This document shows positions 8,578 to 11,462 of a DNA stretch of 64,000 nt, in pieces. The notes beneath the pieces are model-generated. The model was not told the origin of the DNA. It saw only the letters and a program-made list of their open reading frames with translations, and made no database searches. Source of the DNA: Nereida ignava. GTDB lineage: Bacteria > Pseudomonadota > Alphaproteobacteria > Rhodobacterales > Rhodobacteraceae. The stretch lies in the NCBI RefSeq assembly GCF_001049735.1, contig NZ_CVPC01000016.1, positions 23,832 to 87,831 of the forward strand, given 5' to 3'. Made by a program: the position numbers and the translations under genes. Positions within the stretch are counted from its first letter, which is position 1; each line of letters opens with the position of its first letter.

Positions 8578-9801
8578 TCAATGATGGGTTTCCACTCCGA
8601 CCACAACCATCCCCGTCAAATGCCAGACGGCCGCCATCATGATCCCCATATTGAAGGCAAACTCGTTGGCGCAGCTCTGCTTGAAGAACTCCCCCTCGAG
8701 GAACATGCAGGACCCCTTGCAGAGCTGAACGACGGGGCATGACATGCATTCGGGCCGGAAGGCAAAATGCGTCGCGGTATTCAGCGCGATCCCATCGAAG
8801 TCAGCTACATGCCCAATCTTGTGCACGCCCTTCGCCCCGGTGTTCTGGCAGGTCATGACGTTGCCGCGCAGATCCACGGCGATAGTGTCTTCCCGGTCCA
8901 TGCCGCACTTTTGTCCAAGGGCCTCAATGGGCCTCTGCCGCTGGAGTGAGGCGTAGAACTCATCAATGCGCTCGCCGAGACCAAAGGCGTTCGGGTCCTC
9001 AACCAGCGCCTCGAAGATCGACCGCGTCAGGCTATTGAGTTCCGCAGGTTCAAACCGCCCCGTGCCGATTGCGGTCGCCGCATCATAAACATTCACCACG
9101 CCTTCGAGCCCGACAAACACATCCGGCCCGACATTTTCGGCGAACCAGGCCTTGAGGGCCCGAAGGTCGTGATGCTGGCGCGTCAGCACCGCATTGAACC
9201 CGGTCTTTTCGGGGCGATCGGCCAGCAGGGTTTCGATCCATCGACGCTTATCTGGATCATCAAGTGGATCGGGCCCGCGCAAATGCTGCCCCGGGCCGTC
9301 ATGGCTGATCCCGATGGCAATGTCGTATTGCGCGATGAACTCGAGCTTTTCCCGATCAAGCAAGGATCCGTTGGTGATGATTGAGAAAGCAACCCCTGGA
9401 AACAGCTCCGCCAGTGCGGGGATCAACCGTTTGATCTTGGCCCAGTACAGAAAAGGCTCGCCGCCCCAGAGCTCAATCTGTTCTGGGGCTTGCGCGATCC
9501 ATCCGTCAAGCTGGGTCAGAAACTGCGCGACATCTGCCAATTTGGAGACGGTTGCATCACCGATCTGGACAGCTTGATTGCAATAACTACAGGCGTAGTT
9601 ACACGAGAGCCCAAGTTGGATTTTCAGGATGCGGGGTGCGCGGGATTTTCCGAGGGGTTTGTCTTTGGCCACGCGCGGTACCGCCGCGAAGATTCCCGGT
9701 TCTACCAGCAGCGGCAGCCCCTCGCATTCGGATGTGTGCGGGTTGTAGCGCACGTGATGACGGCTGCCGTCACGCGCTTCCAGTTTCAGATCGAACCACA
9801 T
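8578..9801 (-). CDS. Radical SAM/SPASM peptide-modifying enzyme in the phage tail operon
   Basis: 407 residues. The radical SAM cluster motif CNYACSYC (Cys 67, 71, 74) starts the TIM barrel, followed by ELWGGEPFLYW. The C-terminus carries a textbook seven-Cys SPASM domain: C-X13-G-X4-C, then CMSC-X5-C-X3-C, then a last Cys, enough for two auxiliary 4Fe-4S clusters. SPASM proteins usually install crosslinks or other radical changes in ribosomal peptides. Start ATG overlaps the preceding stop as TGATG, so it is translated together with the oxygenase-like gene and the Cys-rich protein upstream. It is the last gene of the phage late operon. That the Cys-rich protein is its substrate is inference from position and composition. 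Confidence 0.9.
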   Translation of the reverse strand: MWFDLKLEARDGSRHHVRYNPHTSECEGLPLLVEPGIFAAVPRVAKDKPLGKSRAPRILKIQLGLSCNYACSYCNQAVQIGDATVSKLADVAQFLTQLDGWIAQAPEQIELWGGEPFLYWAKIKRLIPALAELFPGVAFSIITNGSLLDREKLEFIAQYDIAIGISHDGPGQHLRGPDPLDDPDKRRWIETLLADRPEKTGFNAVLTRQHHDLRALKAWFAENVGPDVFVGLEGVVNVYDAATAIGTGRFEPAELNSLTRSIFEALVEDPNAFGLGERIDEFYASLQRQRPIEALGQKCGMDREDTIAVDLRGNVMTCQNTGAKGVHKIGHVADFDGIALNTATHFAFRPECMSCPVVQLCKGSCMFLEGEFFKQSCANEFAFNMGIMMAAVWHLTGMVVVGVETHH

Positions 9802-10433
9802 CAGTCGAATAGCCTTTCCTCGATCGCCACGGGGAGATTGACGCGGAAGTTCGCGACGACCTGCACATGCGGCGCGCTCCCCTCGTAGGGGTGCTGGTTG
9901 TGGGGAATATGAGAGGGGAAGAAGACCGAGAGCCCCGGCCGCGGGTTAACCGAGTAGCCATGGCGGCTCTCATAAGGCAGCCGCCCCTCGTCAAAGTAGC
10001 GCGACGGGTCCTCGATTACGAACCGAGGGTTCCCCACGCTGTTCACCGGCTGGCCCGACCCACTGCCGGTCAGGAAGTGGACGCAGGTCAGGTCGCCCTC
10101 GCGGCTGTCTTTGTGGGTCGAGATGAAGCCGCCTTTGGTGATCACCAGCGCACGGTTTTCGCAATGATCGGGGTCGAGATATTTGGCCCAAGGGCCGAGC
10201 ACGGCGCGCGCGCAAGCGAAGAGATGGGCTTTCAAGGTCTGACCTGCGTCGCATTGCTCAAGTATGCCGCGCACACGGCGCTTGGCTGCATTGGCCATCG
10301 ACCCGCTGCCATTTGCTTCGACTGTGGCGATGGCCTCGTCGGCCAGTTGCCTATTCACCACCCAGTCGACTGGCGTCTCTACGAACGTGACCCGCGTCGG
10401 CCAGAGGTCGATACTCGTGCTTCGGATTTCCAT
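9801..10433 (-). CDS. Putative 2OG-Fe(II) oxygenase B
   Basis: ATG at 10433 chosen: it lies two bases after the Cys-rich protein stop; a TTG start at 10448 would overlap that gene. The 210-residue product has STHKDS (His107-x-Asp109) and a distal FFPSHIPHNQHPYEG with His178, arranged like the HxD...H facial triad of 2OG-Fe(II) dioxygenases. The Arg that normally binds 2-oxoglutarate is not obvious; a His (about 189) stands near the expected place. Members of this group are often found by phage tail genes. Hydroxylation of the neighbouring Cys/Asn-rich protein is a reasonable but unproven role. Confidence 0.6.
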   Translation of the reverse strand: MEIRSTSIDLWPTRVTFVETPVDWVVNRQLADEAIATVEANGSGSMANAAKRRVRGILEQCDAGQTLKAHLFACARAVLGPWAKYLDPDHCENRALVITKGGFISTHKDSREGDLTCVHFLTGSGSGQPVNSVGNPRFVIEDPSRYFDEGRLPYESRHGYSVNPRPGLSVFFPSHIPHNQHPYEGSAPHVQVVANFRVNLPVAIEERLFD

Positions 10434-10435
10434 CG

Positions 10436-10732
10436 TCAGCACCGGCAATTACAGTTGCAGTTGAAGCTATAGCGGTTGGCTGTAATGGTCACAGCACCGG
10501 AACTGCCGCCGCCTGAGAGGCTGTGAACCGTGCAGTTTGCCACGCAGTTACAGTTGCCGCCGGAAGTGTTGTAACTGCGCGGCCAAAAAGACCCTCCAGA
10601 CGTCGGGGAGCCATTGCTGAGAGATACGCCCGTGATTGTGCCTGCACCAATTGCCGGCTTGTTGGTGATCCGCGACCAGTCCACGTTGCCGCTGTCGTCG
10701 ATCACGATAGTTGTTCCGACCTTATAGGCCAT
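10436..10732 (-). CDS. Cys/Asn-rich tail-associated protein, candidate modified-peptide precursor
   Basis: 98 residues. The start at 10732 has a strong Shine-Dalgarno (AAGGAGG, six bases upstream). Residues 1-40 (MAYKVGTTIVIDDSGNVDW, then SRITNKPA) resemble the short N-terminal segments of phage tail-fibre proteins. After a Gly/Ser-rich linker come two Cys blocks: NCNCVANC (Cys 61, 63, 67) and, ending exactly at the stop codon, NCNCNCRC (Cys 92, 94, 96, 98). Six of seven Cys follow an Asn. A conserved-looking N-terminus, a simple linker and a dense C-terminal core, next to a SPASM enzyme and two oxygenase-like genes, is the design of a RiPP precursor. It overlaps the upstream gene by 11 bases. 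No known RiPP family is recognised. Confidence 0.75.
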   Translation of the reverse strand: MAYKVGTTIVIDDSGNVDWSRITNKPAIGAGTITGVSLSNGSPTSGGSFWPRSYNTSGGNCNCVANCTVHSLSGGGSSGAVTITANRYSFNCNCNCRC

Positions 10733-11462
10733 GGCTGCCTCCTTGCGCCTGATGGGCCAGGATCTCGGAGAGCCCGGCCTTGCAGTGGGAATTTGGGAGT
10801 TCGAGCGAACAGAGGACGGGGATGCACATTCGCTCCTCGCCCTCGAAATAGGTGCTGTCATGGGGCACATGGCCCTCGAAGACGAACATGGAGCCCGTGC
10901 GTGGCTCGACCGCATACCAGCCGCCGACATAGGCGTCTGGGTTGTTGCAGGGCCAGAGCCGCTTACCGACATTCGCCGGATCGTAGAAGCGCACCGCGCC
11001 GCGATGGAGCGAGGTCTCGGGGCAATCGGCGTCCAGCACCACACGCGGGTAATAGGTGCAGACGATGTCGGTCTGAAAATGGGTGTGGGCGTTTATACCG
11101 ACATTTTCGCGCAGGGCGCGGCGCTGCCAGAAGGTGTCCGACATCATGGCGATCTCGCCTGTGTGGTCGTAGCCATAGGCAAGCTGCAGATATTCCCTGA
11201 CAGCTGCCGCCACCATCTGCGCCAGCACCGCAATCGCAGGGTCCTGTCGGTCCATCAGGAAATTGTGCCGCAGATGTCCAAGATGGTTGGTCTGGTCGCC
11301 AACATTACGGCCGTCGCCCGCGTCTTGAATGCGGTTCGCCACCGCGTCGTCGGCCGCTAACGCGTGTAGGTGGTCGTTAAAGCCCTCCGGCAACTCCCAG
11401 TGCTTGTGCAAAACGAAGGTGGGATAGATCAGCTGTAACTCGGTCGTGGTGGCAATCTCCAT
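10722..11462 (-). CDS. Putative 2OG-Fe(II) oxygenase A (TIGR02466/PF13759-like)
   Basis: 246 residues from ATG 11462, which overlaps the preceding stop as TGATG and has GGAGGT just upstream; a GTG one codon earlier is possible. The region INAHTHFQTD (His126, His128, Asp132) and SMFVFEGHVPHDS...EEERM-like end (His201, Arg211) match the metal and 2-oxoglutarate positions of the putative 2OG oxygenase family found in marine phages. The order in the operon is oxygenase A, Cys-rich protein, oxygenase B, radical SAM. It probably hydroxylates a protein or peptide; the substrate is unknown. Confidence 0.65.
   Translation of the reverse strand: MEIATTTELQLIYPTFVLHKHWELPEGFNDHLHALAADDAVANRIQDAGDGRNVGDQTNHLGHLRHNFLMDRQDPAIAVLAQMVAAAVREYLQLAYGYDHTGEIAMMSDTFWQRRALRENVGINAHTHFQTDIVCTYYPRVVLDADCPETSLHRGAVRFYDPANVGKRLWPCNNPDAYVGGWYAVEPRTGSMFVFEGHVPHDSTYFEGEERMCIPVLCSLELPNSHCKAGLSEILAHQAQGGSHGL

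What the first reader, a model, noticed from the sequence alone, without database searches (positions are those of the whole stretch)
8578..11462. RiPP-like modification cassette built into a phage tail operon
Four translationally coupled genes at the end of the prophage late operon encode two 2OG-Fe(II) oxygenase-like proteins, a SPASM radical SAM enzyme with all ten expected cluster Cys (three plus seven), and a 98-residue protein with a tail-fibre-like N-terminus and a Cys/Asn-dense C-terminus. Seen: motifs, overlaps, order. Known: SPASM enzymes modify ribosomal peptides. Inferred: the phage makes a radically modified, perhaps crosslinked and hydroxylated, peptide and displays it on or near its tail tip, for adhesion, penetration or protection. 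I know of no described system of this kind.
Basis: partly seen in the sequence, partly recalled or inferred. Interest (0 to 1): 0.93.

Follow-up and report, generated by a model that had tools for sequence, protein, structure and literature searches.

The report
Radical-SAM module for phage tail tips
In this prophage and many other tailed phages, a protein that ends in an alternating Asn-Cys strand, likely part of the tail fibre, is encoded beside a radical SAM enzyme that is predicted to modify that strand, so these viruses would be using radical chemistry to build the tip of their own tail.

Summary
In detail: at 8578-11462 (- strand) lie a SPASM radical SAM gene with all ten cluster cysteines, two 2OG-oxygenase-like genes and a 98-aa protein ending in NCNCNCRC. 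A fifth gene, T3 (11462-12367), belongs to the module. The pairing is widespread. Of 90 clusters (80% identity) of this enzyme family fetched through the enzyme, 76 have 5 kb upstream; 65 of them carry there a protein with a C-terminal alternating X-Cys run (X mostly Asn, Ala, Asp). Carriers range from small proteins to full-length tail fibres, some collagen-like, and some have the run directly before a Hint domain. In the reverse test, 37 of 38 distinct C-terminal NCNCNCxC tails in viral contigs have a radical SAM gene downstream. In close relatives the last 8 residues are 94% identical, the middle 37%. The enzyme model is closest to CteB (thioether), ChlB and a sulfatase maturase. Most likely this is a maturase for phage tail-fibre tips; thioethers are the favoured, untested chemistry. 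Of 50,697 phage records only three (two phages, JWF and 2-1) matched the enzyme over 80% of its length. My paper searches found no description.

The parts
8578..9801 (-). SPASM radical SAM enzyme (407 aa), phrog_1802 family; predicted maturase
   Evidence: PF04055 44.2 bits, TIGR04085 29.2 bits, phrog_1802 E 1.3e-52; ten cluster Cys conserved; model pLDDT 92.5, nearest folds CteB, ChlB, anSMEcpe
9801..10433 (-). oxyB, 2OG-oxygenase-like (210 aa from ATG; ORF open to TTG at 10448), motif HxD...H
   Evidence: phrog_81 E 4.9e-6; family alignment of 60; coordinates
10436..10732 (-). Cys-run protein (98 aa), predicted substrate
   Evidence: 118 homologues with E up to 0.01; conserved beside the enzyme in relatives
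10439..10462 (-). C-terminal run NCNCNCRC (last 8 codons)
   Evidence: 4 Cys kept in 33 of 33 distinct genes; mean identity 94% over 371 pairs; DNA read
10559..10654 (-). approximate variable middle of the Cys-run protein (residues about 27-58)
   Evidence: mean identity 37% over 371 pairs in which the enzyme is 84% identical
10655..10732 (-). conserved N-terminus (26 residues, MAYKVGTTIVIDDSGNVDWSRI...)
   Evidence: mean identity 85%; homologue list
10722..11462 (-). oxyA, 2OG-oxygenase-like (246 aa), motif HxH...H
   Evidence: TIGR02466 30.4 bits, below cut-off; phrog_81 E 1.5e-8; family alignment
11462..12367 (-). T3 (301 aa), conserved fifth gene; C-terminal Ig-like domain, likely structural
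12364..13497 (-). collagen-like tail fibre protein directly upstream (context)
   Evidence: many tail-fibre PHROG hits, best E 6e-33
13500..14483 (-). tail fibre protein (context)
   Evidence: phrog_2631 E 7.4e-51

Best explanation
This late operon encodes a small protein with a C-terminal Asn/X-Cys strand together with a SPASM radical SAM enzyme that is predicted to modify that strand, likely by tying its Cys sulphurs to neighbouring Asn, Asp or Ala residues as thioethers, so that the protein would form a stiffened, covalently modified tip of the phage tail fibre. Shown: the gene module, its conservation in many phages, the fixed Cys run and variable middle of the small protein, the position of equivalent runs at the C-terminus of full-length tail fibres, and the fold class of the enzyme (model). 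Inferred: that the run is the enzyme's substrate (from two-way co-occurrence); that the product is part of the virion (from fibre fusions, the late operon and the T3 partner); that the bonds are thioethers (from the nearest solved folds, the Cys-rich substrate and the Asn/Ala/Asp-Cys bias); that the two oxygenase-like proteins hydroxylate the same protein. Where the run is followed by a Hint domain, that domain would cut itself off and leave the run as the new C-terminus.
Against: No product, bond or virion protein was observed. 11 of 76 clusters lack a run protein. The window's small protein has no family hit of its own. The fold match does not separate thioether formation from other SPASM chemistry: ChlB ties with CteB and anSMEcpe follows closely; equivalog cut-offs for known maturases are far from met (PapB 64.7 of 340 bits). 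The oxygenase genes are absent from more than half of the clusters (37 of 66) and oxyA lacks the usual carboxylate.
Confidence: 0.52

Rival explanations
1. The substrate and the tail location are right, but the radical SAM chemistry is different: epimerisation to an alternating D/L strand as in proteusins or epipeptides, oxidation of Cys to formylglycine as in sulfatase maturation, or a carbon-carbon link.
Against: Epimerase matches are well below CteB and ChlB. The anSMEcpe sequence has Asp after the auxiliary-cluster Cys (PCDFY) where this family has Gln or His (TCQN/TCHN); that this Asp is catalytic in anSME is recalled. The run has no CxPSR-type motif (motif recalled).
Confidence: 0.2
2. 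The module makes a diffusible modified peptide (bacteriocin, signal or superinfection factor) that the prophage carries as cargo; it is not part of the particle.
For: In the window the small protein is only 98 aa and has no tail-family hit; the module is the last of the late operon, next to host genes; chromosomal relatives of the enzyme sit in a RiPP-like setting.
Against: In many phages the run is the C-terminus of a long fibre; T3 proteins with an Ig-like domain accompany it. No exporter or peptidase was recognised among the window genes I scanned, though not every frame was scanned.
Confidence: 0.13
3. The run is a metal or Fe-S site, or an inter-chain disulphide ladder, at a fibre tip, and the radical SAM enzyme acts on something else nearby.
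For: Alternating Cys would put all thiols on one face of a strand; three chains of a collagen-like fibre would bring them together (inference; collagen fusions).
Against: Does not explain why tails of very different carriers keep one enzyme family next to them, or why more distant radical SAM genes lie beside other NC tails.
Confidence: 0.1

Closest known systems
Ranthipeptide/SCIFF-type thioether maturases (PapB, CteB) and their Cys-rich precursors
   Same: SPASM radical SAM enzyme next to a Cys-rich ribosomal product; CteB is the top fold match; rSAM_PapB is the best NCBIfam hit
   Different: 64.7 bits against a PapB cut-off of 340; the substrate is a phage tail-type protein with an alternating C-terminal run
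Anaerobic sulfatase-maturating enzyme (anSME)
   Same: radical SAM plus SPASM that acts on Cys of a folded protein rather than a short peptide; close fold match
   Different: TIGR03942 39.9 against 349.45 bits; Asp after the auxiliary Cys replaced; no sulfatase
Radical SAM cassettes in the host recognition cluster of pelagimyophages (PMC7029224, passages seen)
   Same: radical SAM genes inside the tail-fibre region of marine phages
   Different: that paper reports their presence as a difference between two genomes; the passages seen mention no Cys-tailed protein and no role. Whether they belong to this family was not tested
Radical SAM genes of Campylobacter phages CP220/CPt10 (PMC2853527, passages)
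   Same: several radical SAM genes in one phage
   Different: about 31% identity over a third of the protein; one locus looked at has no annotated tail-fibre pairing of this kind
Hedgehog/intein-type Hint domains
   Same: PF05203 in the JWF protein right after the Cys run
   Different: here C-terminal on a tail fibre, following a Cys run; cleavage not shown

Membership tests
SPASM radical SAM enzymes | CX3CX2C cluster motif and radical SAM fold | tested here: met
   PF04055 44.2 of 29.5 bits; C67/C71/C74; model matches radical SAM structures
SPASM radical SAM enzymes | seven-Cys SPASM motif | tested here: met
   all seven columns invariant in 34 sequences; TIGR04085 29.2 of 27 bits
phrog_1802 (phage radical SAM family) | profile match | tested here: met
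   E 1.3e-52 over residues 48-386
RiPP gene cluster | genetically encoded substrate conserved next to the modifying enzyme | tested here: met
   65 of 76 clusters; 37 of 38 tails
RiPP gene cluster | leader removal by a peptidase and export of a small product | tested here: inconclusive
   none recognised among the window proteins scanned; not every frame was scanned; Hint domains may replace a peptidase in some phages
RiPP gene cluster | post-translational modification present in the product | not testable with these tools
   needs mass spectrometry
Known thioether maturases (PapB, SCIFF, nif11-type) | NCBIfam equivalog cut-off | tested here: not met
   rSAM_PapB 64.7 of 340, rSAM_nif11 59.9 of 518.7, rSAM_six_Cys 28.3 of 425 bits
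Anaerobic sulfatase maturase | NCBIfam TIGR03942 cut-off; Asp after auxiliary-cluster Cys (role recalled) | tested here: not met
   39.9 of 349.45 bits; Gln/His at that place
2OG-Fe(II) oxygenases (oxyB) | HxD...H iron-binding residues | tested here: met
   H112, D114, H183 of the 215-aa frame, in conserved columns
2OG-Fe(II) oxygenases (oxyA) | HxD/E...H iron-binding residues | tested here: not met
   H127, H129, H202: His in place of the acid, as in 38 of 60 relatives
2OG-Fe(II) oxygenases (both) | PF13759 gathering score | tested here: not met
   22.6 and 16.4 of 27 bits
Phage tail fibre proteins (the 98-aa protein) | match to a tail-fibre family | tested here: not met
   no PHROG hit for the window protein; 7 of 10 long run-bearing relatives in other phages do hit

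The most novel reading that the evidence does not exclude
Phages of several bacterial lineages share a general way of building a tail-fibre tip: the C-terminal (Asn-Cys)n strand of a trimeric fibre is rewritten by radical SAM enzymes, sometimes with oxygenases or a second radical SAM enzyme, into a covalently crosslinked, hardened point that carries a hypervariable binding part, and in some phages a Hint domain caps the strand until it has been processed. Different radical SAM lineages were recruited for it independently. It would be the first virion structure known to be made by radical chemistry.
Probability: 0.45. Interest if true: 0.96.

Novelty: categorically new. Interest (0 to 1): 0.87.

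Why it matters
Radical SAM maturation is known for small peptides, sulfatases and cofactors (established knowledge); a virus that uses it on its own particle would be a new use of that chemistry and would explain why these enzymes sit among tail genes. The fixed, modified tip with a variable middle suggests a platform for host binding or envelope penetration. It gives a ready substrate logic, an Asn/Ala/Asp-Cys run at a C-terminus, for a large enzyme family labelled only 'radical SAM domain-containing protein' in PHROGs, and two cultivated phages in which it can be tested directly.

Tried and rejected
Chance or low-complexity origin of the run: rejected by codon use and conservation and by the background count. 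Spurious frames: some CxCxC frames are clearly artefacts (for example one in L163 and a CT-repeat frame in L026); L210 and L279 look spurious too. Circularity: my first association counts mixed in loci that had been fetched by the Cys pattern; one search repeats the count with loci fetched through the enzyme only, and repeats the composition count on the same basis (Asn before Cys 60% instead of 64%).

Oxygenases as collagen prolyl hydroxylases: among 88 clusters counted, 6 have collagen-like frames and 2 of these have an oxygenase, while 38 have an oxygenase without such a frame; no association, with a strict pattern. T3 as an enzyme: nothing enzyme-like found; only its C-terminal Ig-like domain matches, in a library second look; the N-terminal part was not tested alone. 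PDB sequence searches with oxyA and oxyB gave nothing useful. An unrelated small protein family with KCKNCNCNCHC near its N-terminus was set aside (10 of 120 loci). Campylobacter phage radical SAM genes are a different, distant set. I called the neighbours of the enzyme in marine loci L165 and L174 2OG-like by eye; the one tested has no Pfam hit and my oxygenase profiles found none there, so I do not claim it. Ten paper searches found no description of a Cys-tailed tail fibre with a radical SAM enzyme; subscription papers and preprints are not held.
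Full report
What is there. The window (G000:C16:23832-87831) holds a prophage whose late genes on the - strand include terminase, portal, head protease, major head protein, tape measure and a J-like tail protein. The operon ends with two tail-fibre proteins (13500-14483, 12364-13497), then T3 (11462-12367), oxyA (10722-11462), the Cys-run protein (10436-10732), oxyB (9801-10433) and the radical SAM gene (8578-9801); neighbours overlap or abut. 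Beyond 8548 lie genes on the + strand, the nearest a NUDIX protein.

The pairing, searched through the enzyme. Among loci L002-L203, all fetched through the enzyme, 199 carry it at over 250 bits and form 90 clusters at 80% identity. 76 clusters have a representative with 5 kb or more upstream. By rule, 62 of the 76 have on the same strand a protein with CxCxC within 30 residues of its C-terminus, or CxCxC followed by a Hint domain. I credit three more by reading: L042 and L158 (Hint form) and the cluster of L099 (6 of its 8 members pass; in L099 itself the frame is broken). That is 65 of 76. At the level of loci it is 130 of 151 by rule. The 11 clusters without a run are L087, L088, L089, L091, L098 and L135, which look chromosomal; L165, L171 and L174, marine phages; L166, whose contig carries a second copy of the enzyme beside a run protein (L028); and L147. 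A small remark on the control: in 19 other stretches of this genome (346,791 bases) 1 of 393 longest non-overlapping frames ends in CxCxC.

The pairing, searched through the tail. 29 have no in-frame run, 10 belong to an unrelated small family, 9 have the run inside a protein, 68 at the C-terminus and 4 before a Hint domain. Of 54 distinct C-terminal tails 38 have 3 kb downstream, and 37 of these have a radical SAM gene there on the same strand, 30 at over 250 bits; both distinct Hint cases with 3 kb have one; none of 3 internal cases does. Some weaker hits are truncated copies; others (L223, L286, L295, L322) are more distant radical SAM genes, several in a row in L223 and L295.

The carriers. 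In 68 cluster representatives with a run (all fetched through the enzyme) the carrier is 55-726 aa long, 26 under 150 aa and 35 of 250 aa or more; 10 have the Hint form. In the run, X is Asn 197, Ala 72, Asp 46 of 355; over the last 90 residues Cys follows Asn in 362 of 605 cases. Seven of 10 long carriers match tail-fibre PHROGs at E up to 1e-5, the strongest through collagen-like repeats (L109, L044, L043, L203), three match none (L094, L067, L113). In six loci the run and collagen-like repeats are on one polypeptide. The Hint form was read in 15 loci, including both isolated phages; Pfam supports it in JWF (PF05203, 47.5 bits) and weakly in L033 (27.8, below the cut-off of 32.1).

Selection. 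In 33 distinct genes of the close family all four Cys of the last 8 codons are kept, with TGC and TGT both used at three of them. Over 371 pairs of loci the enzyme is 84% identical, the N-terminal 26 residues of the small protein 85%, the middle 37% and the last 8 residues 94%. So the run is the most fixed part and the middle the least.

Outside phages. L091 (Variovorax) has the enzyme downstream of a YcaO protein (PF02624 150.4 bits, with a nitroreductase domain) and a small frame with two Cys-containing motifs; L087, L088 and L098 look alike by eye. This suggests kinship with RiPP maturation. Marine loci L165 and L174 have tryptophan-halogenase-family genes upstream of the enzyme (PF04820 144.3 and 185.9 bits).

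How it most likely works (inference). The fibre protein is made late, its C-terminal X-Cys strand enters the radical SAM active site, and bonds are formed between Cys sulphur and neighbouring Asn, Asp or Ala, which fits the fold class and the residue bias. Oxygenases, where present, would hydroxylate the same protein. The product would be a stiff, reduction-proof tip on a trimeric fibre, with the variable middle as its binding surface. A Hint domain, where present, would cut itself off and expose the run. None of these steps was observed.

Known or not. Ten searches of the paper library gave no description. Passages of PMC7029224 mention radical SAM cassettes in the host recognition cluster of pelagimyophages, without a function. 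Passages of PMC2853527 and PMC3322345 call radical SAM genes in Campylobacter phages unusual. In the phage collection 20 of 50,697 records match the window enzyme at all and 3 over 80% of its length: Achromobacter phages JWF (two records) and 2-1; searches with two relatives found the same three. JWF is a plaque-forming siphovirus listed as temperate (PMC3899368, passages). I rate it categorically new because the nearest kinds, RiPP and sulfatase maturation, act on secreted peptides or enzymes and not on a virion part; if the product proved to be a free peptide, 'new variant of a known kind' would be right.

Noticed in passing
L223, L295, L230, L286, L322 (viral contigs): Other phage proteins with C-terminal NC runs lie upstream of more distant radical SAM genes, several in a row in L223 and L295; a possibly independent recruitment of the same logic.
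   Followed up: partly
L165:4006-5655, L174:4605-5798: Marine phage loci with tryptophan-halogenase-family genes (PF04820) upstream of this radical SAM family, and no Cys-run protein found; might be another modification set. A viral halogenase, VirX1 of cyanophage Syn10, is known from passages of PMC8407142; relation not tested.
   Followed up: partly
L087, L088, L091, L098: Relatives of the enzyme in bacterial contigs beside a YcaO-like protein and a small frame (YcaO confirmed by Pfam in L091 only): possibly an undescribed chromosomal RiPP type.
   Followed up: partly
L135 (Sulfuritalea MAG): The enzyme lies downstream of what looks by eye like a peptide-exporting ABC transporter and a membrane fusion protein.
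   Followed up: no
L078, L080, L082, L126: Thalassobacter stenotrophicus CECT 5294 holds four copies of the enzyme at 79-100% identity (one cut by a contig end), while the window's own genome has one.
   Followed up: no
window 10722-11462: OxyA and 37 other of 60 relatives have His where 2OG oxygenases usually have Asp/Glu (HxH...H), which may mean unusual chemistry.
   Followed up: no
L211, L212, L213, L214, L218, L227, L238, L250, L278: A small phage protein family with KCKNCNCNCHC near its N-terminus, unrelated to this module as far as seen.
   Followed up: no
L026:1718-3016: The third Cys of the radical SAM motif reads Ser in this one relative (CNYSCSYS); variant enzyme or sequencing error.
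   Followed up: no
window 266-8063: Genes on the + strand left of the prophage look by eye like exopolysaccharide synthesis (glycosyltransferases, sugar-nucleotide enzymes); no family search was run on them.
   Followed up: no
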